NCBI GenBank assembly: GCA_900095165.1
Contig: LT606947.1
Location: 1,670,309 to 1,734,308 of the forward strand
Reading direction: 5' to 3'
Length of the DNA stretch: 64,000 nt
From: Polynucleobacter necessarius
GTDB taxonomy: Bacteria > Pseudomonadota > Gammaproteobacteria > Burkholderiales > Burkholderiaceae
Shown: positions 8,623-64,000 of the stretch, piece after piece
Layout: each line of letters opens with the position of its first letter
How positions within the stretch are numbered: the first letter of the stretch is position 1
Notes under the pieces: model-generated
Databases searched by the model: none
The model's input: only the letters and a program-made list of their open reading frames with translations
Told to the model about the DNA's origin: nothing
Program-made: the position numbers and the translations under genes

Positions 8623-9939
8623 CTAATGGTCTTCTGGCTTGGAGTGCGATGCGAATAATTTAGGAAGCAACTTAATCAGGGCGTCACGCTCAGCGCCATT
8701 GGAGTGTTGTAAAGCATGCAATGAGCCATGTAAGAACTTATTCGTCAAGCCCTGAGCCATCGCATTGAGAACTTCTTGGGGATCTTCGCCACGCATCAAT
8801 CGTTTCATGGCACGATCGAGTTCAAGTTGTCTGAGATGTTCCCCTTGTTGCTGAATATCCTGAATCAAGGGCACAGTCTTGCGACCTTGCATCCAGTGCA
8901 TAAAGTTACCAACGCGATCTTCAATAATGGCTTCAGCTTGACTTACAGCTGCTTGACGCAAAGAGGCGCCCGTTTGAATCATGACGCCTAACTCATCTAC
9001 CGTATAAAGATAGATGTCATTTAAACGAGCAATCTCAGGCTCAAAATCACGAGGTACCGCTAAGTCAATCATCACCATCGGTTTATGGCGCCGGTGCTTG
9101 AGGGCGCTTTCTACCATTCCTAAGCCGATGATGGGGAGTGAGGATGCTGTGCTTGAAATGATGATGTCGAACTCATGCAAACGTGAGGGCAACTCTGAAA
9201 GCTTGAAAGATTCCGCTTCAACATCTTGAATGGAGATCGAGTCTGCTAATTCTTGGCCACGTTCAATTGTTCGATTGGCGATTGCGACTGCTTTGGGTTT
9301 GCGTGCAACGAAATGGGTTGCACACAAAGTAATCATGTCGCCAGCGCCAATAAATAGAACGCGTTGATCGGCAATACTTTCAAAAATACGTTCAGCTAAG
9401 CGAACAGAGGCTGCTGCCATCGAAATTGAATGAGCACCAATTTCTGTTGAACCACGAACTTCTTTTGCAACGGCAAAAGTTTTCTGAAAGAGTTGGTTGA
9501 GATAAGCGCCCAAGACGCCTGCATCATTTGCAGTGCGCACAGCATCTTTCATCTGCCCCAAGATTTGGGTTTCACCAATCACCATGGAATCTAAACCGCA
9601 AGCCACCCTAAAAGCGTGACGTACCGCATCCGATTGCGGAAGTGAATAAATATGTGGCTGCAAACTGCTTGGAGCAAGTTGTTGAGTCTTAGTTAACCAA
9701 TCAAAAGTAGCTTCATGCAACAGACTGGCTGCATCTGCATCGTTAGCGGCGCAATACACTTCTGTACGATTGCAGGTGGACAAAATTGTGGCTTCTGGAA
9801 GGCCGGCCTGATTCGCGCCAACGAGATGTTGGCGAAGATCGTGCAACGCTTCTTGAAGAAATTCAGGGTCAAAGGCGACCTTTTCCCGAATGGCGACTGG
9901 CGCTGTGTGATGATTGATGCCGAGTGTCAACAACTTCAT
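8623..9939 (-). CDS. hemA: Glutamyl-tRNA reductase
   Basis: 438 residues. The catalytic cysteine is C56 in STCNRTEVY, the NADPH-binding region begins near VLFIGAGDM (about residue 194), and the C-terminal helical dimerisation domain is complete. The enzyme reduces Glu-tRNA to glutamate-1-semialdehyde, the first step of C5 haem synthesis. First gene of hemA-prfA-prmC. Its ATG (9939-9937) is one base from a potential divergent start at 9941, so the promoter must lie inside the opposite gene. Confidence 0.96.
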
Positions 9940-9940
9940 A

Positions 9941-10248
9941 ATGGTGATTATAGATTTGATGGCATCAACAATGGGGGTAGCAATGGGGTTTTTAGCGTTT
10001 CTGGTGATCGGTGGTCTAACTGGCGTATTTGCCTTGGTTTTTTACCCAGGACAACGCAAATTTAAGCCTAAAGCCAAGAAATTCCTCATGGCCGCCTTGA
10101 TAGGCTTCATATCTGCCCTAGCTAGCTCTTATTTAGGGCAATTTATAGGTTTGTTTCAGTCGGGGAAGATGCTGAGTGGCTGAGCGCCATAGTGGCTTCT
10201 TGTCTTGTGGGTTGCCTCTACGCGGCAGTTGCTAGAAAGGCTATTTAG
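9941..10248 (+). pseudogene. Small membrane protein, frameshifted
   Basis: The open frame from 9941 (or 9959) encodes two hydrophobic segments separated by a basic loop (PGQRKFKPKAKKF) and stops at 10181-10183. One additional G in the G4 run at 10162-10165 would join it to the frame reading EDAEWLSAIVASC and a third hydrophobic segment, ending at TAG 10246-10248. The joined form is a three-segment membrane protein of about 100 residues, loosely like the GlsB/YeaQ membrane proteins; the family is not certain. The present product would lose the last membrane segment. It is divergent from hemA with almost no spacer. Confidence 0.5.
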
Positions 10249-10571
10249 GCCAAGCCTAACCAAAGAGCCAATGCCCTGTTAACTCGCACCATCATTGCGT
10301 CATTGAGCTCACCAATTACAGATCCTATTTTTTCGCTTCGAATTGATATGATCTTATCGATTTGAACTTGGGATGGTCGAGATAGTCCATTGGTTTCGCT
10401 GGGCTCTATATCAAGTCGGAATATTGGAGCTTGCACAATTTCACTCGAAATCAGGGCAACGGTTAGCGTTGGATGAATGTCACTAAATACGTCTGACTGA
10501 AGGATTAAGACTGGTCGCGGCTTTTCAAAGTCGCCCTGCATGGCAACCGTTACTACATTGCCACGTTTCAT
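10245..10571 (-). CDS. MazF-like mRNA interferase toxin
   Basis: 108 residues with the MazF/PemK fold signatures: KRGNVVTVAM at the N terminus, the substrate-contacting KPRPVLILQ block (about 17-25) and VALISSEI in the third strand, where relatives usually have Thr-Ser. The end, RALALWLGLA, is typical of MazF partners of DUF3018 antitoxins. It would cleave mRNA when not bound by antitoxin. The start codon overlaps the antitoxin stop in an ATGA, the classic coupled arrangement. The frame is fully open although the antitoxin gene is interrupted, so the toxin is either poorly translated, weakened, or controlled elsewhere. Confidence 0.85.
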   Translation of the reverse strand: MKRGNVVTVAMQGDFEKPRPVLILQSDVFSDIHPTLTVALISSEIVQAPIFRLDIEPSETNGLSRPSQVQIDKIISIRSEKIGSVIGELNDAMMVRVNRALALWLGLA

Positions 10572-10783
10572 GCTTCATCCAAGTCAGCTAATGCGTCATC
10601 AAGGTAGGACATCAATTCTTTGTCTGCTCGATCGGATGTGGCTACTAATGCTGATTGGCGACGGCACTCTTCAAAAAAACCTGGGGCTTGCGTATTTGGA
10701 ACCCATATTTGAATAGGTCACAATCCAGCATCCCTTAAGGCAAGCCTATGTTTTTGGACTCGAAGTGCGGTATTTGAGGACAT
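10568..10783 (-). pseudogene. MazE-like antitoxin (DUF3018 type), nonsense at codon 22
   Basis: ATG at 10783-10781 opens a 72-codon frame running to the TGA overlapping the toxin start. Codon 22 (10720-10718) is TGA. The flanking residues are ALRVQKHRLALRDAGL, then PIQIWVPNTQAPGFFEECRR, which matches the DUF3018 antitoxin pattern in which this position is Arg, so one CGA-to-TGA transition explains it. The remaining 21-residue peptide would lack the toxin-binding C terminus. No in-frame ATG or GTG follows the stop until near the end. Intact family members neutralise MazF and repress the operon. Confidence 0.8.
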
Positions 10784-10802
10784 TTCTAAGCTCTTTATTT
10801 AC

Positions 10803-10814
10803 GTTACATGTAAC
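10803..10814. promoter_or_regulatory. Palindrome upstream of the mazEF-type pair
   Basis: GTTACATGTAAC is a perfect 12-base palindrome located 20 bases upstream of the antitoxin ATG. Antitoxins of this class commonly autoregulate by binding such sites, so it is a likely operator, though binding is inferred only from position and symmetry. Confidence 0.45.
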
Positions 10815-10850
10815 ATACTAACTCAGTTATTTGTTGCATGAAACTTAAGG

Positions 10851-11621
10851 TTAATCCCCCGTAGAAAATAAGTCCAAGCCCATTAAATTATTTCTACCTA
10901 CCCAAATAATTGGTTCTAGACCCTGCTTTATGAGCCATTCATTGGCCTTCGTGAAATGCCCGCAACTTGCCATTCCGCCCGGCTCCAGAAAGGGCCGATC
11001 TGTTTTGTAGACCCCAAGCCCGGAGGGGTGAGAGGATTGCAGAATCAATTGGTTCGGAGCCGCCTCAATCAGGGGCAACTTGGATTGGGCATGACTACCC
11101 CATAGCATCCAGACTAAATGGGGCTTTTGGAGAGCTAAGGCGCTAATCAACCTATCGATCAGGGATTTCCAGCCGAGGTTTGTGTGGCTGCCAGCCTCAC
11201 CCAGATTGACGCTGAGTGCAGTATTGAGCAACAGCACGCCTTGCTCAGCCCAGGCATGAAGATCGCCGCTAGGCAGAGTCCCAAAACCCTCCAAAGTTAG
11301 CGCTTTACTGATATTGCGTAAAGAGCTAGGAAATTGTCGGGAATTGGTAGGAATATTACTCGGGATAGAAAAGGCCAGGCCTTGAGCAAGCCCCGGGAAG
11401 TGATAGGGATCCTGGCCCAAGATGACGACTTTGACCTTGATAGGCGGAGTTAGGGCGAGTGCTTTAAAGAAATTCTGAGGCTCTGGACGAATGTCCTCAG
11501 CATTATTATTCAACTCAGCCCTGAGATTAGTCTGCAGCGTTTGCCATTCGTCAGATTCAAAGTAATCACCTAGCAGAGCATGCCAGTCCTCGGGAATATC
11601 GTCAGCGGAAAGCGAATGCAT
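10851..11621 (-). CDS. ung: Uracil-DNA glycosylase
   Basis: 256 residues of the family 1 Ung type. The water-activating loop GQDPYH is at 69-74 (catalytic Asp71), the Ser/Pro-rich minor-groove loop follows, and the DNA-intercalating loop HPSGLGVY lies near residue 197. It removes uracil from DNA and so limits C-to-T change. The C terminus runs about a dozen residues past the usual Trp ending (after EPIIW), which may be a small readthrough or natural tail. Its start touches the last base of the upstream peptidase gene. Otherwise intact. Confidence 0.93.
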   Translation of the reverse strand: MHSLSADDIPEDWHALLGDYFESDEWQTLQTNLRAELNNNAEDIRPEPQNFFKALALTPPIKVKVVILGQDPYHFPGLAQGLAFSIPSNIPTNSRQFPSSLRNISKALTLEGFGTLPSGDLHAWAEQGVLLLNTALSVNLGEAGSHTNLGWKSLIDRLISALALQKPHLVWMLWGSHAQSKLPLIEAAPNQLILQSSHPSGLGVYKTDRPFLEPGGMASCGHFTKANEWLIKQGLEPIIWVGRNNLMGLDLFSTGD

Positions 11622-13405
11622 TACTCAGCTGGAGTGAGTGTGTACTGAGTTGGAATTTGATCATCCTCAAGAACAGTCATGCATTCATGTTCTAGATCAT
11701 CTCGGTAAAAGCAAATCTGGATGACTTGTCCCAAGATCAAGCTGGAAAGAACCTTTTCCCAACGAGCGGCAATAATCCGTTCACCATTAATACTAGCGAT
11801 CAAATCTCCAGTCGCCAGGCCTGCTAATTGCGCAGCTCCACCATCAAGGACATGCGTTACTTTTAGCCATCCATTTGCCTCAGTATGGCGTAGTCCTAAT
11901 TGCAATTTGATTTGTTCTAGTTTGGAATGGACTTTCTGCTTCACAGAAATTGTTTTTGGATCAAGCCACTTCTGGATTGGAATATCTTCAACGCCAAAAA
12001 TATAGCGAAACTTAAACTCATTCCAAGTTTTGTTAAATCCTGCGCCCAGAAGTGCGAGTATCAAATCATCCAAGCCGTCCTCAGCAATGCCATCGAGCGT
12101 GACACCATGCGTTTGCCAAATGAGGCGCATCAAATCATCTAGGGATTGACGGTTACCACTGAAGCCGCGAATCTTGAGATCTAAACCTAAGGCAAGCAAT
12201 GCCCCCTTGCCGTAATAACTCACTACCGCATTCGGAGTGTTCTCATCGGCTTGGTAGTACTTTGTCCAGGCGTCAAAAGAGCTATCTGCCAAGCTTTGCT
12301 TGAGTCTTCCTGGCCCGCGTAAAATGCCATTCCAATTGTTCGCAACCAGCTTGAGATAGGCTTTGAGATCGATGCGTTTGCTACGGAATAATTGCAGATC
12401 ATCGTAGTAACTCGTAAAGCCTTCAAATAGCCACAGTAAGCGAGTATGGTTTCTGCGATCGAGTTGATAAGGTTGAAATATTTTGGGTTGAATCCGTTTA
12501 ACTAGCCAGACATGAAAATACTCATGACTACAAAGACCTAAAAACTCACGATAGGACGCCTCATCTAAATGGGTGTTGGCTTGAGGAATCTGATCGCGAC
12601 GGCATAGTAATGCAGTGCTATTGCGATGCTCAAGTCCACCATACCCAGAAAGAACCGCATTGACCAAAAATAAATAATTCTGGAAAGGCGCCTTCTTTGT
12701 CTTAGGTTCAAAGGGATTAATGGTACAGGTGCAGATAGCCTGAAGGTCGGCTGCTAAACGCTCTAGATCAATTTCATGAATGCAGCCCTGAATCGCCATG
12801 CTGTGTGATACACCATTCGATTTCCAATGGGCAATTTGAAACTCTCCCATCGCAATTGGATGATCCAGTAGATCATCATAATTTTTGGCGAGATAAAAGC
12901 CGTAACCTTGACCATCTACTTTGGCTGCTTGTAGGCCTGTCTGAACAGTCCAAGAATTCGTCCAAGTATCTTTAGGTGGAATTAATGTTAATGCGCAGGG
13001 TAAAGACTCTTGACCTTTGACTGCCAAACATAAACTACTTAAATTGATAAACGCACGCTCAGTATCGAGATAAGCTGCGCGCACTGAAGTATCAAATGCA
13101 TATACCATTGTGAGAATTTCTACTGCACCGGCTACCCTAGGTAAGCGCCACTGATCGTTATCGATCCTTTCTAGTTGCAGTACTTCATACGGGTTATCAA
13201 TTGCAAACGCTTCAATCGTTTCAATTTGCTTGCTGAAGTCTCGAATCAAATAGCTTCCTGGAATCCATGCAGGCATTTTTAGAATCTGCCCATTCAGTAA
13301 TGGGTTCTCAATACGCAACTTCACATGAAAGCGGTGGCCATGCAGATCTGCCGCCTAAATGATGTATTGGATTGCAGGTAAATCAGAAGTATTCAATTCG
13401 TTCAT
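11621..13405 (-). pseudogene. M61-family metallopeptidase (glycyl aminopeptidase-like), stop at codon 17
   Basis: The frame from ATG 13405-13403 is protein-like but reads TAG at 13357-13355 (codon 17), followed directly by AADLHGHRFHVKLRI, the expected N-terminal strand of M61 peptidases. After that it is open for about 577 codons to 11621. The zinc site HEYFH lies at about residues 294-298 of the full frame, with a downstream LFEGFTSYY supplying the third ligand, and a C-terminal PDZ-like domain is visible (GGAAQLAGLATGDLIASINGE). A CAG-to-TAG transition would explain the stop. Restart at GTG 13324 would remove part of the N-terminal beta domain, so some product is possible. Confidence 0.75.
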
Positions 13406-16576: not shown

Positions 16577-16929
16577 TCAGCTTGCTTCAACAGCCTTTTT
16601 TAAGCACTTAGAAATTTCTTCATAGCGCTTGATGGCAATCTTGTTTGGAACCACTTCTTTTTTTCGCCCATCTTCATTTGCTGCCATCTTGATATAACCC
16701 ATAGCACTAAGGTTCTTTAGTCGCCCATGAAGGGTCGCTTGGGAGCCAAGCTCTGACAGAGAGATAAGATCCCCAACCAAAATAGGCTGTTTGGCATGAA
16801 AGTTCAAAATGATTTTATCTAGAAGACTTTCTTCAATAGAGTCGAGTTTTTTTCCCCAGGATTGATGCGATCTAGAACATCAATCAGGTTTAAAAATCGA
16901 ATGTAGCAAGAAGGCTTAATGGTAGACAT
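16577..16929 (-). pseudogene. Winged-helix (MarR-like) transcriptional regulator, frameshifted
   Basis: ATG at 16929-16927 begins a frame that stops after 37 codons. Adding one base to the A7 run (T7 on the plus strand, 16847-16853) joins it to the frame ending at 16577. The joined product, about 117 residues, reads INPGEKKLDSIEESLLDKI then a helix-turn-helix (LSELGSQATLHGRLKNLSAM) and a wing (GYIKMAANEDGRKK). That layout is MarR-like. The surviving 76-residue piece retains the DNA-binding part but lacks the N-terminal helices used for dimerisation. Target genes are unknown. Confidence 0.6.
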
Positions 16930-24764: not shown

Positions 24765-25957
24765 TTATTTTTCTAAGTAGCGTTGAGCTAGTTTGACCCA
24801 GTAGCTCACGCCAACAGGGATCAATGCGTCATTGAAGTCATAAGAAGGATTATGGAGATGGCATGGACCCATGCCATGACCTACTGCGCGGTGATCACCA
24901 TCACCATTGCCTAGGAACACATAGCAATCAGGCTTCTCCAGCAGCATGAATGCAAAGTCTTCGGCGCCCATCGTTGGATCAATTGAGGTATTGACGTTTT
25001 GCGTTCCAACTAACTCACCCATCACTTCGCTAGCAAACTCTACTTCTTTGTCATGATTAATGAGCGGGGGGTAGTTGCGAGAAAAACTCATTTCTGCTTG
25101 ACAGTCAAATGCGCTCGCTACGTTGTGTGAGATTTCTCGTAAACGCTGCTCAATTAAATCTAAAACTTCTATCGTGAATGTGCGAACGGTTCCGCCAATA
25201 AACGCACTATCTGGAATGACATTGCTCGTCTCGCCCGCATGAAACTGCGTAACCGATAGCACCGCTGCATCCACTGGACGTTTATTTCGGGTAATAATGC
25301 TTTGCAGAGCCTGAACAACTTGAGCGCCCGCCAGCACAGGATCGGCACTGTTGTGTGGCAAAGCAGCGTGGCCACCTTTGCCACGGACGATGATTTCAAA
25401 GGAATTGCTTGAAGCCATCATCGGGCCAGAAGTTACGCCAAAATGGCCTTCGGCAAGTCCTGGCCAGTTGTGCAAGCCAAAGACAGCATCGCAAGGAAAT
25501 TGCTTGAACAATCCATCGTTAATCATTTCTTGCGCGCCAGCACCACCTTCTTCGGCAGGCTGAAAAATAAAAATGACTGAGCCTTTGAAATCGCGATGAT
25601 TAGATAAGTATTGGACGGCACCTAGGAGTATTGTCGTATGGCCATCATGGCCACAGGCATGCATCTTGCCGGGATTCTTTGAAGTGTGTTCAAAAGTATT
25701 GTGTTCTTGTAATGGCAGCGCATCCATATCGGCACGCAAGCCAATCATTTTGCCCTCACCTAAGTCGCCATCGAGTCTTCCGACAACCCCAGTTTTTCCA
25801 AGGCCGCGATACACCGTAACCCCCAGCTTGAAAGCGTTTCTGCTACCAGGTCAGAAGTGCGATTTTCTTCAAAGCGCAATTCTGGATGCGCATGAATATT
25901 GCGTCGAATCTCTTGAATTTCTGATGCGGAGTCGATGATTTCTGGAAGTAATCGCAT
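24765..25957 (-). pseudogene. M20D amidohydrolase (hippurate/N-acyl-amino-acid hydrolase-like), frameshifted
   Basis: The N-terminal 65 codons (from ATG 25957) include NIHAHPELRFEE, typical of M20D enzymes, and the remaining ~345 codons are in another frame. One G missing from a G5 run (C5 on the plus strand, 25820-25824) is the simplest cause; repair gives SSWGVTVYRGLGKTGVVG. The metal ligands are all in the second piece: HACGHDGH, EEGGAG and GAEDFAFML. Repaired length is about 397 residues. Family enzymes deacylate amino acids. The main fragment lacks the first metal-domain strands, so activity is doubtful. Confidence 0.75.
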
Positions 25958-25976: not shown

Positions 25977-26699
25977 TTACTTAGGTAGTTTTATATGCTC
26001 CGCAGCAAATCGTAATGCCTCTATGGAGTAGGGGGCATTCTCCAGCTTTTGAAGCTGCTTAGGAAGAGTGGGAATAACGCCTAAAAAAGGCGCAAAAATT
26101 CTGTCTTTTAAGGTTTGAATATTCTCTTCTAGAAGAGTCATCTCATCTGAAGGCGTATTCGTTACCCAGCCAGCAGTCATCAACTGGCGTGACTGGATTG
26201 CTTCACAAGTGAGCAAGGCGTGATTAATGCAGCCCAAACGCATGCCTACTACAAGGATGACTGATAAATCCATTGCCTGAGCGAGATCGCCCAAATCTTC
26301 CTGTTCATTGAGGGGGACTAAAAATCCACCTGCCCCCTCAACAACTACCACCTCAAATTGTTGGCCCAGGGCATGTAAATCACTCAGGATGACGGAAGAA
26401 TCTAGGTAGATATCATTCTTCTTAGCAACAAGGTGTGGGGCGGCTGCTTCATCTAGAGCATAGGGGCAGAGACTTTGTTCCTGAAAATTTAATCCTGATG
26501 CGATCCGCAATGTTTCTAGGTCTTCATTCAGCTTCTGGCTACTAGAGTCAACATAGGTGCCGGCGACTACAGGTTTAAAGCCGATTGCGCGGATACCTGC
26601 CTCTCTTAGCTTGAGGATGAGCGCACCGCTGAGTAAAGTTTTACCAACCTCAGTATCTGTGCTAGTGACAAAAAAACCAGGAGGAGAACTGATTGTCAT
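25977..26699 (-). CDS. bioD: Dethiobiotin synthetase
   Basis: 240 residues. P-loop TDTEVGKTLLSGAL near residue 14, the FKPVVAGT block with catalytic Lys and the VVVEGAGGFLVPL strand are all intact. It converts DAPA, CO2 and ATP to dethiobiotin. It starts inside the bioF stop (ATGA), so bioA-bioF-bioD was one operon. Its substrate comes from BioF and BioA, whose genes are broken here, leaving it without a supply unless DAPA is imported. Confidence 0.94.
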   Translation of the reverse strand: MTISSPPGFFVTSTDTEVGKTLLSGALILKLREAGIRAIGFKPVVAGTYVDSSSQKLNEDLETLRIASGLNFQEQSLCPYALDEAAAPHLVAKKNDIYLDSSVILSDLHALGQQFEVVVVEGAGGFLVPLNEQEDLGDLAQAMDLSVILVVGMRLGCINHALLTCEAIQSRQLMTAGWVTNTPSDEMTLLEENIQTLKDRIFAPFLGVIPTLPKQLQKLENAPYSIEALRFAAEHIKLPK

Positions 26700-27924
26700 A
26701 AATTACCTTCTACTGTTTGCTCGATGATCTTCAATGCCCGAATCAACTCACGTAGGTCATCAACACTATGGTTTGCAGAAAAAGTAATGCGCAGACGAGA
26801 GCTGCCAACGGGAACAGTGGGCGGACGGATTGCTGGAATCCAATAGCCCGCTTCATCCAAGAGCTTAGCTACTGCTAATGCGTTGGCATTGCTTCCTAAA
26901 ATGACTGGTTGAATTGGGGTGGATGAGGGAGTTTTTTCCCAGCTTGAGAAAATCATTTCATCACACTAAATCTGAATTAGTTCATTCAGTTTTTTACGCC
27001 GAGCAATGCCTTCATCGCCTTCGATTAACTCAAGGCTACTGAGTAAGGTATGCGCAATCGCCGGTGGTGTAGCGGTACTGTAAATATAAGGGCGTCCCTT
27101 TTGAATGAGCCGCTCAATAAAAGGTGCGGCCGCACAAATAAATGCGCCACTAACGCCAGCCGCTTTACCAAGTGTGCCGACATAAATGATTCGTTCTGAA
27201 CGTACGCTTGTGTGTTCCAAAATACCATGACCTTGTTCACCAAGCACGCCAATCCATGTGCATCATCGACTATCAACAAGGCATCATATTGTTCGGCAAT
27301 GCGAAGGAGTTTTTCTACTGGCGCGATATCCCCATCCATGCTGAATACACCATCGACCACAATCAATTTGAGGGAATAGGTATCTTGCTTTAGCGATTCT
27401 TCCAGTGAGTCGAGATTTTGGTGATCAAACAAGGTCACCTGGGCTTTAGTTTGTGCGCTTGCTAAGCGTACGCCATCGATCAAAGAGGCGTGATTGAGTT
27501 TGGCTGAGTAAATGCTTGCTTGACCTTGCTCAGCAAGTCTAGAAATTCCAGTAATAGCATTGATATTTGCAAGATAGCCAGTGCTAAAGAACAGCGCTCT
27601 TGCATTAGGGATGTGCTGTTCTTCACAGGCGGCTAATTTCTTTTCAAGCAATTCATGTGCAATGCTATGGCCGCTAATTAAATGCGATGCGCCGCTACCA
27701 ACCCCATATAGTTTTGCACCTTCCGCAAGCGCAGCGACTAATTTGGGGTGGTTTGCTAGGCCTAAATAGTCGTTACTACAAAATGCTTTCAGTTCTCGCT
27801 TGCCAACATGGGCCTTGGTGTCGCAGGGTGATTCAGTAATGCGTAGTGTGCGTTTGAGTAACTGCTCATCTAATTCTGCAATCTGCTGCTCCGCTATATC
27901 GCGAGCTTTAAAGTATGCACTCAT
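26696..27924 (-). pseudogene. bioF: 8-amino-7-oxononanoate synthase, frameshift plus nonsense
   Basis: Three consecutive pieces make one BioF of about 409 residues. The N-terminal piece runs to VDDAHG, where one T is missing (AA on plus at 27251-27252), and the frame then continues as GVLGEQGHGILEHTS. That frame has the PLP region (YVGTLGKAAGVSGAF with the catalytic Lys). A TAG at 26968-26966 interrupts it before the C-terminal domain, which is otherwise in frame to 26696. Two separate hits mean it is dead. BioF condenses pimeloyl-ACP/CoA with alanine, the first committed biotin step. Confidence 0.85.
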
Positions 27925-29261
27925 GCCAACACCTGATTGAGTGCGCGTTGTACAGAGGCGCCCATTTGCATCGTTTCCTCTGAAGAGAGAATGTGGGGCG
28001 GCATGACATAAATCGTATTGCCAATTGGCCTAATGAGAATGCCTTCTGCCATACTTGCTGAAAACATATCTCGTGAAAACGTAACTGAATTTTTTAGTGA
28101 TTCAGGTTTGATATCAAAGGCTAGGATCATGCCTTGCTGGCGCCAATGTTCGATGCGAGGATCTGTTTTTGCCCAAGTAAATGCATTGGCATGATCTTTG
28201 CTGTGTTCAAGATTTTTTTCAAGAACAGATTCAGCTTCAAAAATCTCTAGATACGCAAGCGCTGCAGCGCATGCTAATGGATTGCCTGTATAGGAATGCG
28301 AATGTAAGAAGCCTTGTTACATTTGGTCACCATAGAAGATGCGATAAATTTTGTCAGTCGTCATGCAAAGTGAGAGAGGAAGATAGCCACCACTAATACC
28401 TTTAGATAATGTCAAGAAGTCTGGCCAAATTCCTGTATGTTCACAGGCAAAAAATTTGCCTGATCGACCGCAACCCACTGCGATCTCATCGGCGATGAGA
28501 TGAACACTATAGCGATCGCAGAGTGATCGTGTTAAGCGTAAATATTCTGGTGAGTACATCGCCATTTGCCCCGCACATTGAACTAGTGGTTCAACAATTA
28601 GTGCGGCAATATTTTGATGCTCAACTTCTAATAGTTTCTCTAATGCACTTGCAGCGTATCGAGCAACATCATCGGCACTTTCTCCGGACTTTGCTTTGCG
28701 CGCATCAGGTGAAGATACAGTGAAAACATCTTGCAAAAGTGAGCCGTAGGCTTCGCGAAAAATTGCAACATCTGTAACTGCTAATGCATCTAGAGTTTCA
28801 CCGTGGTAGCCATTTTCTAAGCAGACAAATTTTTTTGTGGTTTGCTCTTTAGGTGCCAAAAGTGATGACTCATCTTCAAGGCAATCTCTACTGCAGAGGC
28901 ACCATCTGACGCAAAAAACGTGACCCAAATGACTTTGAGTTAAAGCGGATAGTTTCTCGGAAAGCTCCACCACAGGAGGGTGGGTAAATCCGGCGAGCAT
29001 GACATGCTCAATTTTTTCTAGTTGATTGGTAATGGCTTGATTGATGCGCGGATTGGAGTGGCCAAACAGATTGGTCCACCAAGAGCTAATGCAATCGAGT
29101 AGCGCATTTTCCTTGTCGTCAAAGAGCCAAGCACCCTTACCCCTAGTAATTGCAATCAAGGGCAATGACTCGTGATGCTTCATCTGAGTGCAGGGATGCC
29201 AAACAGCATCAAGGCTGCGATCAATCAGTGAGGTTTGATTTGGATCAGAAATAAGCTTCAT
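27921..29261 (-). pseudogene. bioA: DAPA [16 protein letters not shown], two frameshifts plus nonsense
   Basis: Starts at ATG 29261 and overlaps the bioF start (ATGA) at its end. Residues after GHVF are out of frame until KKFVCLENGYHGETLDALAV. The expected FASDGASAVEIALKMSHHFW is in another frame, entered at the A6 run 28913-28918 (plus strand) and left at the T7 run 28830-28836. A TAA at 28319-28317 then interrupts after FYGDQM; the same frame continues QGFLHSHSYTGN to the end. The PLP lysine is in TLSKGISGGYLP. Three lesions make it non-functional. BioA makes DAPA from KAPA with SAM. Confidence 0.85.
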
Positions 29262-54975: not shown

Positions 54976-55837
54976 ATGAATGAAAAATTAGAGCAACTAT
55001 TAAGCCATCTTGAGACTTTTTTACCAAAGCAGCTAACTGAAGAGCAGTGGAGATCTTCGACTGTTTTCAGATGGCGTCGTCGCGATAGCATCTTTGGGAG
55101 CATTGGATTTTTGCAACCAGTCAAACATGTTGCAGATATTGCTTTTGAAGATCTAAAGAATATCGATCGTCAACGTGATGCCATTCGTGACAATACAAAA
55201 AACTTCATCCAGAAAAAGCCTGCTAATAATATTTTGTTAACGGGCGCACGTGGCACAGAAAAGTCATCACTCATTAAAGCGAGTTTGCATGAGTTTGCTA
55301 GCCAGGGCTTGCGCTTAGTTGAAGTTGAAAAAGAGCATTTGGCTGATTTGGCTGACATTACAGATTTATTGGCTGACTGCCCAGAGCGCTTTATTGTTTT
55401 TTGTGATGACCTCTCATTTGAAGATGGTGAATCTGGTTATAAGGCGATGAAGTCCGCATTAGATGGATCTGTATCTGCTCAGGTCGACAATATCTTGATT
55501 TACGCCACTTCCAACCGACGCCATCTCTTGCCTGAATACATGAAGGACAACGAAGGCTATGTCCATGGCGATGATGGAAAAATTCATCCAGGAGAAGTAG
55601 TTGAGGAAAAGATTTCTCTCTCGGAGCGCTTCGGTTTATGGCTTTCTTTCTACCCGTCAAAGCAAGATGAATATCTAGAAATTGTTGCTCATTGGCTGCG
55701 TCATTTTGGTTTGAGTAATGCGCAAATTGATGGCGCTAGAGCTGGAAGCATTAGTTTTGGCCTTAGAGCGTGGCTTATGATCTGATCGTGTAGCTTGGCA
55801 ATTTGCTAAGCACTGGGCTGGTTCGCACACTGCTTAA
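54976..55837 (+). pseudogene. DUF815 AAA+ ATPase, Walker A mutation plus frameshift and stop
   Basis: The frame from ATG 54976 gives an AAA+ protein of the DUF815 family: TGARGTEKSS in the place of the Walker A GARGTGKSS, FIVFCDDLSF as Walker B and IYATSNRRHLLPE as sensor I. The glycine before the lysine is Glu (codon GAA 55258-55260). Near 55740 the frame shifts; the family C terminus (EALVLALERGL, then SDRVAWQFAKHW) is in another frame, which carries TGA at 55778-55780 where family members have Arg, and ends at 55835-55837. The open frame stops at 55785. Three hits, each damaging. Confidence 0.75.
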
Positions 55838-61703: not shown

Positions 61704-62198
61704 ATGCCCATTCCCGCATCAACAGAGTATTGCGTGATATCTGCCCCTTTTGGGTCCTTAGGCGTGCAAACAGAGTTGGTGGACGGCAGCTTGATGATTT
61801 CAAAATTGATTATTTACCCCCGGATACCACTTTAATCTCCCCCAAGAAATGCGCTGGCTAAAGCATTCTCAAAACAGTGCGCTCAATATTTCAAAGATGC
61901 TTCATCAAAATTTGATGTTCCGCTTAAGCTAGTTGGAACGGCCCATCAACAAAAGGTATGGAATGCCACTCAAGGTATTCAGGTTGGCAATACCAAGACT
62001 TACGGAGATATTGCCAAGGTGATTAGGGGTGGTCCGCGTGCTGTTGGAACTGCTTGTGATGCTAATCCTTACCCCTTAATTACACCCTGTCACAGAGTGG
62101 TTTCCGCGCAAAGAGTTGGTGGGTTTATGAAGGAAGATGCTCCAGGGCTTTATCGCCAAATCAAAATTTGGCTTTTGAAGCACGAGGGTGCGCTTTAA
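61704..62198 (+). pseudogene. ogt: Methylated-DNA--protein-cysteine [17 protein letters not shown], two frameshifts
   Basis: ATG 61704 opens a frame that loses register near 61797 (one base missing after GSL; the family sequence DDFKIDYLPPDTTL is in another frame) and regains it near 61850 (one base extra in AAGAAATGC). It then runs NALAKAFSKQCAQYF to TAA 62196-62198. Open fragments are 44 residues and the C-terminal ~115. The active site PCHRVV and the helix-turn-helix QKVWNATQGIQVGNTKTYGDIA are intact in the second part. Loss would leave O6-alkylguanine unrepaired. Two near-cancelling shifts argue for real decay. Confidence 0.75.
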
Positions 62199-63292: not shown

Positions 63293-64000
63293 ATGTTGAT
63301 TTGGTTTGTCATCATCTATTGGGTGGTATCTGTAGGCATTGGTCTTTGGGCTGCGCTACGGGTCAAAAACACTGCTGACTTTGCTGCGGCTGGTCATAGC
63401 CTCTCTTTGCCGATTGTGACTGCTACGGTATTTGCTACCTGGTTCGGCTCTGAAACCGTTTTAGGTATCCCTGCCACTTTTTTAAAAGAAAGGCTTGGCG
63501 GAATCGTATCCGACCCTTTTGGCTCTTCTATGTGCCTGATTTTGGTCGGACTCTTTTTTGCCCGCCATTTCTACAACCGCCGGATGCTGACGATTGGCGA
63601 TTTCTTTAGAGAAAAATACGGTCGTACTGTTGAGGTTTTGGTGGCTCTCTGTATTGTGGTTTCCTATTTGGGTTAGGTGGCTGCGCAGATTAAAGCTTTA
63701 GGCCTTGTCTTTAATGTTGTGTCTGAAGGCAGCATTTCTCAAACGGGCGGTATGTTAATTGGTGCAGGTAGTGTGTTGATTTACACGCTCTTTGGCGGCA
63801 TGTGGTCTGTGGCTATTACTGACTTCATTCAGATGATCATCATTGTGGTGGGCATGCTTTACATTGGTGGGGAGATGACCGTTCAAACTGGCGGTGTTGG
63901 CGTTGTCTTGGAGCACGCCGCTGCTGCTGGACAGTTCTCCAATTTCTGGCCGGATCTGAATCTCGCCTCTATCTTGGGCTTCGTGGCTGCCTTATGCACC
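63293..64000 (+). pseudogene. Sodium:solute symporter (SSS family), in-frame stop, cut by window end
   Basis: ATG 63293 opens a membrane transporter: WVVSVGIGLWAALRVKNTADF, FAAAGHSLSLPIVTATVFATWFG and GDFFREKYGRTVE are SSS blocks. TAG at 63674-63676 interrupts after VVSYLG; the same frame goes on VAAQIKALGLVFNVV and is open to the end of the window. Family members have Trp at this position, so TGG-to-TAG explains it. Only the first three helices would be made. A GGAG ribosome site precedes the start. Confidence 0.8.

What the first reader, a model, noticed from the sequence alone, without database searches (positions are those of the whole stretch)
10245..10783. Antitoxin interrupted, toxin open: an orphan MazF
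The MazE-like gene has TGA at codon 22 but the coupled MazF-like toxin frame is intact. A free toxin should be harmful, so either TGA is read through, the coupling now starves toxin translation, the toxin is already attenuated (Ser where Thr-Ser is usual), or another antitoxin covers it. This is a natural test of how a toxin-antitoxin pair dies.
Basis: partly seen in the sequence, partly recalled or inferred. Interest (0 to 1): 0.65.

Follow-up and report, generated by a model that had tools for sequence, protein, structure and literature searches.

The report
Decaying toxin-antitoxin pair, broken antitoxin
In a freshwater bacterium whose genome seems to be losing genes one by one, a toxin-antidote gene pair has lost its antidote gene while the toxin gene still reads through, most likely because the toxin is weakened or barely made; it is one broken gene among many.

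Summary
A MazE-like (PF11455) antitoxin frame at 10568-10783 (-) has TGA at codon 22, and the overlapping PemK/MazF (PF02452) frame at 10245-10571 (-) is open. All 22 other aligned genus rows encode Arg there.

The context changes the reading. This Polynucleobacter genome is decaying in the 144 kb examined: 14 of 129 genes intact in two sister species are broken here, against 0 of 130 and 2 of 132 in reverse controls. Lesions are TAG, TAA, TGA and frameshifts, and none of 37 tRNA loci has a UCA anticodon. Recoding or one sequencing slip are poor explanations; ordinary pseudogene formation fits.

'Ser for Thr' is genus-wide (21 of 22 relatives), so not attenuation. A better candidate is own-only Gly16Glu, three residues before the catalytic Arg, though codon tests show no significant relaxation. 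Survival of the toxin frame is uninformative: about 0.5 lesions are expected in 108 codons. No second PF11455 gene was found.

A side result may matter more: seven related species keep, beside ung, only the toxin-binding half of this antitoxin as a short open frame, without toxin or operator there. That deserves follow-up; the given finding is a modest example of toxin-antitoxin decay.

The parts
10245..10571 (-). PemK/MazF-family toxin, 108 aa, open frame; own-only G16E and A21V; Arg19 kept; Ser42 at the Thr48 position
10568..10783 (-). MazE-like (PF11455) antitoxin frame, 71 codons and stop, interrupted
10718..10720 (-). in-frame TGA, codon 22; Arg in 22 of 22 other aligned genus rows
10568..10571 (-). 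ATGA overlap of antitoxin stop and toxin start
   Evidence: sequence
10803..10814 (.). proximal operator-like palindrome GTTACATGTAAC; the only exact site in the whole genome; exact in 21 of 23 aligned pairs, this one included
10833..10844 (.). distal operator-like site, 2 mismatches here; exact in G008 and G079; exact in 9 of 23 aligned pairs
9914..10245 (+). small membrane-protein-like frame beside the toxin (judged by eye; no Pfam family for the G008 copy), frameshifted near 10162-10174; open in G008 and G079
10851..11621 (-). ung (uracil-DNA glycosylase; name recalled from the sequence, no family search), upstream flank of the site
8623..9939 (-). hemA-like gene (name recalled from the sequence, no family search), downstream flank of the site

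Best explanation
This is a vertically inherited MazE-like/MazF operon at the ung-hemA site of Polynucleobacter that is dying as part of wide gene decay. The antitoxin took a nonsense mutation at codon 22; what is no longer translated holds most of the protein, including the toxin-binding tail, so neither repression nor neutralisation is expected (from family knowledge). The toxin frame is still open mainly because it is short and has not been hit yet. The cell tolerates it because the toxin is weak, poorly made, or both: own-only Gly16Glu puts an acid in the beta1-beta2 loop three residues before catalytic Arg19, and the early stop removes ribosomes that would restart at the overlapping toxin ATG. 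Shown: the lesion, its absence in relatives, decay over 144 kb, the toxin changes. Inferred: weak activity, lost coupling, order of events, a host-restricted lifestyle.
For: Decay: 14 of 129 genes intact in both G008 and G079 are broken here (13 of 129 counted from the G079 side); reverse controls 0 of 130 and 2 of 132; Fisher p 4e-5 and 0.003. Mixed lesions, more than one in six of the 14 genes by the tally; named ones include bioA, bioF, thiL, ogt, a panE-like gene, an M20 peptidase, an SSF symporter, an OEP efflux protein and an RNase II-like gene. This genome groups with pair-bearing sisters in the Ung tree, with modest support. Toxin: two own-only changes at columns invariant in the other 21 rows, where each other row has 0 or 1; Gly16 in 22 of 22 other genus rows and 38 of 44 order rows, none Glu. 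Arg19 and position 42 map to B. subtilis Arg25 and Thr48 (roles from passages of PMC11394972). Frame survival: 0.53 lesions expected in 108 codons, P(none) 0.59.
Against: The toxin branch here shows no significant relaxation: omega 0.153 against 0.091, p 0.36, and below 1, p 2e-4. Own-only changes are 6 non-synonymous to 7 synonymous against 6 to 17 in three sisters, p 0.28. The antitoxin branch is below 1 too (0.086, p 0.018), so the stop must cover only part of the branch or the frame still counts. A21V is likely neutral: Val in 5 of 44 order relatives and in B. subtilis MazF. Non-Gly at 16 occurs in 6 of 44 order rows (R2, S3, D1). The proximal operator is intact, so the promoter is not visibly dead. 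The toxin ribosome site scores the same as in five of six sisters examined, giving no direct sign of starved translation. The lesion rate used for the frame-survival argument comes from genes chosen because they are broken, and is biased upward.
Confidence: 0.62

Rival explanations
1. UGA is read through or reassigned, so antitoxin is still made.
For: The frame on both sides of the TGA is intact and looks constrained; the base after the stop is C, a leaky context (recalled).
Against: Genes nearby are broken by TAG and TAA as well as TGA and by frameshifts. No UCA anticodon among 37 tRNA loci. All 22 other aligned rows have Arg at this codon.
Confidence: 0.06
2. The TGA is a sequencing or assembly error and the pair is intact and working.
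For: The rest of the antitoxin frame is clean; many single-base lesions in one genome could mean poor sequence; reads are not available.
Against: Single contig, completeness 99.99, contamination 0.42. By the tally six of 14 broken genes carry more than one lesion, and the named ones are mostly biosynthesis, transport and repair genes that a cell can lose (a judgement). The toxin also carries own-only substitutions.
Confidence: 0.09
3. The toxin is active and held in check by another antidote: the second MazF's partner, or a short product re-initiated after the TGA that keeps the toxin-binding half.
For: The 49-codon frame after the TGA is open and holds the part that seven relatives keep alone as a short ORF. 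A second MazF with a small upstream partner exists.
Against: No ATG, GTG or TTG follows the TGA in frame before codon 57; ATT and ATA stand at codons 24 and 26. No second PF11455 gene was found. The other pair's upstream protein has no Pfam match at E 0.01.
Confidence: 0.12
4. The toxin has been kept as a stand-alone regulator, as described for MazF-mx in Myxococcus (passage of PMC2654758).
For: Toxin branch omega below 1 (p 2e-4); open frame; intact proximal operator.
Against: The constraint covers the whole branch, most of which can predate the stop. Among the 21 relatives with the pair at this site none has an open toxin beside a stop-broken antitoxin: G140 has stops in both genes, and L010 only an altered start codon. 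Decay is general here.
Confidence: 0.05

Closest known systems
MazEF/PemIK type II toxin-antitoxin modules (PF11455 MazE-like + PF02452 PemK)
   Same: Gene order, ATGA overlap, operator-like palindromes, profile matches and MazF fold.
   Different: Antitoxin carries a nonsense codon; toxin has Glu16 where Gly is usual.
Degenerating chromosomal toxin-antitoxin loci, such as ccdO157 in E. coli (passages of the review PMC2654758; the original paper not read)
   Same: A chromosomal pair losing function by drift.
   Different: Here the antitoxin carries the stop and the surrounding region is decaying.
Polynucleobacter necessarius STIR1, obligate Euplotes endosymbiont (passages of PMC5632650 and PMC5018217)
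   Same: Same genus; many pseudogenes (269 given for P. necessarius).
   Different: This genome is 1.89 Mb, against 1.56 Mb for STIR1; no host evidence is at hand.
Anti-addiction antitoxins (passages of PMC2654758)
   Same: A chromosomal antitoxin that could protect against a related toxin from elsewhere: a possible analogue of the seven short orphan frames.
   Different: The orphan frames lack the N-terminal half and the operator; no function has been tested.

Membership tests
PF11455 MazE-like antitoxin | profile match above the curated cut-off | tested here: met
   87.1 bits against 22 with X at the stop; 86.2 bits in the genome search
PF11455 MazE-like antitoxin | uninterrupted reading frame | tested here: not met
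   TGA at 10718-10720; so it is a pseudogene of the family
PF11455 MazE-like antitoxin | binds toxin and the operator | not testable with these tools
   palindrome present, binding not shown
PF02452 PemK/MazF toxin | profile match above the curated cut-off | tested here: met
   75.8 bits against 23.1
PF02452 PemK/MazF toxin | MazF fold | tested here: met
   model pLDDT 86.0; 4mdx_A Z 12.8, rmsd 2.9 over 104; 5hk0_B Z 13.4, rmsd 2.3 over 100
PF02452 PemK/MazF toxin | catalytic Arg (B. subtilis Arg25) | tested here: met
   Arg19 by the alignment; role from passages of PMC11394972
PF02452 PemK/MazF toxin | Thr at the B. subtilis Thr48 position | tested here: not met
   Ser42; but Ser in 21 of 22 other aligned genus toxins and 7 of 44 order relatives, so not a sign of decay
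PF02452 PemK/MazF toxin | mRNA cleavage | not testable with these tools
   needs an assay
Working type II toxin-antitoxin module | both genes open | tested here: not met
   antitoxin interrupted
Polynucleobacter necessarius-type endosymbiont | high pseudogene load against sister species | tested here: met
   14 of 129 against 0 of 130 and 2 of 132, over 144 kb only
Polynucleobacter necessarius-type endosymbiont | genome of about 1.6 Mb | tested here: not met
   1,893,413 bases; size from passages of PMC5018217
Polynucleobacter necessarius-type endosymbiont | life inside a ciliate | not testable with these tools
   record is unnamed

The most novel reading that the evidence does not exclude
At this one site Polynucleobacter splits its antitoxin in two: the N-terminal half and the operator are discarded and the toxin-binding half is kept as a stand-alone antidote. 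Seven species already show the end state; the window shows an early step, in which the TGA separates the same two halves and the downstream half still protects against the open toxin after re-initiation.
Probability: 0.08. Interest if true: 0.7.

Novelty: new member of a known kind. Interest (0 to 1): 0.33.

Why it matters
How a toxin-antitoxin pair can be lost without killing its carrier is hard to catch in mid-course. One orthologous site in one genus offers intact pairs, this antitoxin-broken case, one pair with stops in both genes (G140), seven antitoxin-half remnants and sites with no pair, so the order of loss can be studied. For this window alone, the main lesson is a caution: an apparent orphan toxin should be read against the pseudogene load of its genome.

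Tried and rejected
UGA recoding or a suppressor tRNA: rejected on mixed stop types and the tRNA set.

Ser42 as the attenuating change: rejected, genus-wide.

Branch tests for relaxed selection on the toxin: no significant result. The support limits (1.92 log units) reach omega about 0.65 for the antitoxin and 0.41 for the toxin, so the stop cannot be dated well.

Distal operator loss as a special sign: rejected, only 9 of 23 aligned pairs keep an exact distal site.

Starved translation judged by ribosome-site strength or start-site accessibility: uninformative.

Plasmid origin: no match of 10100-11000 in the plasmid collection. NCBIfam gave no family for either protein.

Early disruption counts included shadow ORFs and start-site differences; the count used is that, which requires the gene to be intact in the third genome and ignores stops in the first 10% and last 5%. 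That filter drops an M61 peptidase with TAG at 13357 (codon 17). The two G079 control cases look like doubtful ORFs but are counted. The antitoxin is in the G008-side list but not the G079-side list, where a longer opposite-strand ORF seems to have displaced it. The lesion total used (23 in 4,561 codons) was tallied by hand; some of its stops lie at the ends of alignment pieces (DUF815, one in the RNase II-like gene). One broken gene (170 aa) was not identified; two (111 and 116 aa) have no Pfam family.

For the order-level toxin count, 44 of 57 non-own match rows were read; the 13 weakest were not fetched; some of the 44 are themselves broken. L022 was left out of the invariant-column count.

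Orphan-half constraint: 15 of 21 pairs give omega 0.08-0.47, 5 have saturated dS, and G044/G098 gives 2.2 on 4 changes; pairs are not independent and only the 31 alignable codons were used, which favours finding constraint. That their first 15-20 residues are unrelated to the antitoxin is by eye. A hit near ung in G034 (E 1e-4) was not examined.

Papers: searches; of listed papers only passages of PMC9837558, PMC4285135, PMC5632650, PMC11394972, PMC2654758 and PMC5018217 were seen; the 2013 P. necessarius paper is not held. The Ung tree has only 6 of 34 starred inner branches and skipped three rows.

Full report
What is there. The window lies in a one-contig genome of 1,893,413 bases whose near relatives include two named Polynucleobacter records. 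On the minus strand, between ung and a hemA-like gene, are a toxin ORF at 10245-10571 (PF02452, 75.8 bits) and, overlapping it by ATGA, an antitoxin frame at 10568-10783 (PF11455, 87.1 bits when read with X). The antitoxin frame has one stop, TGA at 10718-10720, codon 22.

Relatives. Toxin relatives were found in 24 of 151 genus genomes searched with the protein (this genome included); PF11455 in 31 of 186 at E 0.01 and in 26 of 186 over the cut-off. In the 22 other aligned pairs the codon is Arg in all 22. One of them, L021 (G140, a draft in many contigs), has two stops and ATA at the start in the antitoxin and a stop in the toxin, and looks like a second dying pair. L010 has ATA at the antitoxin start. 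By coordinates the pair is next to ung in 20 of 21 relatives that hold it at this site (G055 not listed); L022 is elsewhere. This genome groups with pair-bearing sisters in the Ung tree (the forks nearest it are not starred), so the pair was most likely inherited and then damaged.

Operator. Upstream is a perfect palindrome, GTTACATGTAAC, at 10803-10814, exact in 21 of 23 aligned pairs and the only exact site in the whole genome. In the window, with up to two mismatches, two sites are found against 1.57 expected, so the weaker distal site at 10833-10844 rests on its position and on the sisters, not on its score. The distal site is exact in G008 and G079 and in 9 of 23 pairs in all. That these bind the antitoxin is inference.

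Decay. I compared 144 kb (the window and 80 kb beside it) with matching stretches of G008 and G079. Of 129 ORFs of G008 that are intact in G079 and present here, 14 are broken here; from the G079 side 13 of 129. In the reverse direction 0 of 130 are broken in G008 and 2 of 132 in G079; Fisher p 4e-5 and 0.003. Lesions are TAG, TAA, TGA and frameshifts, and by the tally six of the 14 genes carry more than one. Affected genes include bioA, bioF, thiL, ogt, a panE-like reductase, an M20 peptidase, an SSF symporter, an RNase II-like gene, an OEP efflux protein and DUF815. That is what real pseudogenes look like, although reads were not seen. P. necessarius, a ciliate endosymbiont of this genus, is reported to hold 269 pseudogenes (PMC5632650, passages) and about 1.6 Mb (PMC5018217, passages).

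Is UGA read? Stops of all three kinds break genes here, and the 37 tRNA loci found include no UCA anticodon. Nothing supports reassignment. Low natural read-through cannot be excluded.

Is the toxin still a toxin? The predicted model (pLDDT 86.0) matches solved MazF structures, for example B. subtilis MazF with RNA (4mdx_A) at Z 12.8, rmsd 2.9 over 104 residues. Arg19 and residue 42 map to B. subtilis Arg25 and Thr48, whose roles are given in PMC11394972 (passages). Residue 42 is Ser in 21 of 22 other aligned genus toxins, the exception being Thr in L029, and Thr in 37 of 44 order relatives: a lineage trait. What is specific to this genome is Gly16Glu and Ala21Val. Gly16 is kept in all 22 other genus rows and in 38 of 44 order relatives (2 Arg, 3 Ser, 1 Asp; the Asp is in L184, whose frame has a stop). 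Ala21Val is probably harmless, since B. subtilis MazF has Val there. Other own-only changes are A34P, V36L, M75I and V92A. Codon models do not show significant relaxation on this branch, so the case for attenuation rests on one residue.

Why is the frame open? With 22 lesions in 4,490 codons of the other broken genes, about 0.5 are expected in 108 codons, and P(none) is about 0.59 (the rate is biased upward). An open toxin frame therefore says little about selection.

Another antidote? No other PF11455 match exists in the genome at E 10. A second PF02452 gene lies at C1:344617-344937 beside a small gene that has no Pfam match at E 0.01; cross-protection seems unlikely but is untested.

The site in other species. 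Seven of 186 genomes keep next to ung a 52-60 aa open frame that matches only the C-terminal half of PF11455. Two were given to Pfam: the G020 frame is over the cut-off at 26.4 bits, the G012 frame below it at 18.0. No toxin or palindrome was seen beside them in the stretches read; two of the seven (G012, G098) are not among the 101 genomes with a PF02452 match. Fifteen of 21 pairwise comparisons give dN/dS of 0.08-0.47, five are saturated and one gives 2.2 on four changes. In three of the seven (G168, G044, G098) an extra two-gene insertion follows, which resembles an AbiE pair (recalled, not tested). Loss here can thus leave half an antitoxin with no toxin, whereas the window shows a broken antitoxin beside an open toxin.

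Verdict. The pair is a real, broken member of a known family in a decaying genome. Mechanism: lost antitoxin, toxin tolerated because weak or poorly expressed (inferred). Read-through, artefact and hidden antidote remain possible but less likely.

Noticed in passing
G020, G151, G117, G168, G044, G098, G012 (L231-L237), next to ung: Short open frame matching only the C-terminal, toxin-binding half of the MazE-like antitoxin, without toxin or operator beside it; open in all seven; 15 of 21 pairs show dN/dS of 0.08-0.47, one 2.2, five saturated.
   Followed up: partly
window 24768-25957, 26699-27924, 27924-29261, 54976-55834, 61704-62195, 63293-64000, 16580-16929, 13357: Further broken genes in the window: M20 peptidase, bioF, bioA, DUF815, ogt, SSF symporter, an unnamed 116-aa gene, and an M61 peptidase with TAG at codon 17. 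Two neighbouring biotin genes are both broken.
   Followed up: partly
window 9914-10245 (+): Small membrane-protein-like frame overlapping the start of the hemA-like gene on the other strand, open in several relatives and frameshifted here.
   Followed up: partly
L021 (G140): Second apparently dying pair at the same site: two stops and no ATG in the antitoxin, one stop in the toxin; draft genome.
   Followed up: partly
L027 (G000:C1:344617-344937): Second MazF-family gene of this genome with a small upstream partner of no Pfam family at E 0.01, both open.
   Followed up: partly
L117 (G168), L112 (G044), L103 (G098): Two-gene insertion on the opposite strand after the antitoxin half, resembling an AbiE pair by eye; one gene like it also stands at this site in G040.
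   Followed up: no
L023 (G127), L024 (G101): C-terminal MazF fragments with a stop, most like the L022 toxin by eye.
   Followed up: no
L260 (G034:C4:199570-199662): Weak antitoxin-tail match close to ung inside a 128-aa frame, possibly another remnant.
   Followed up: no
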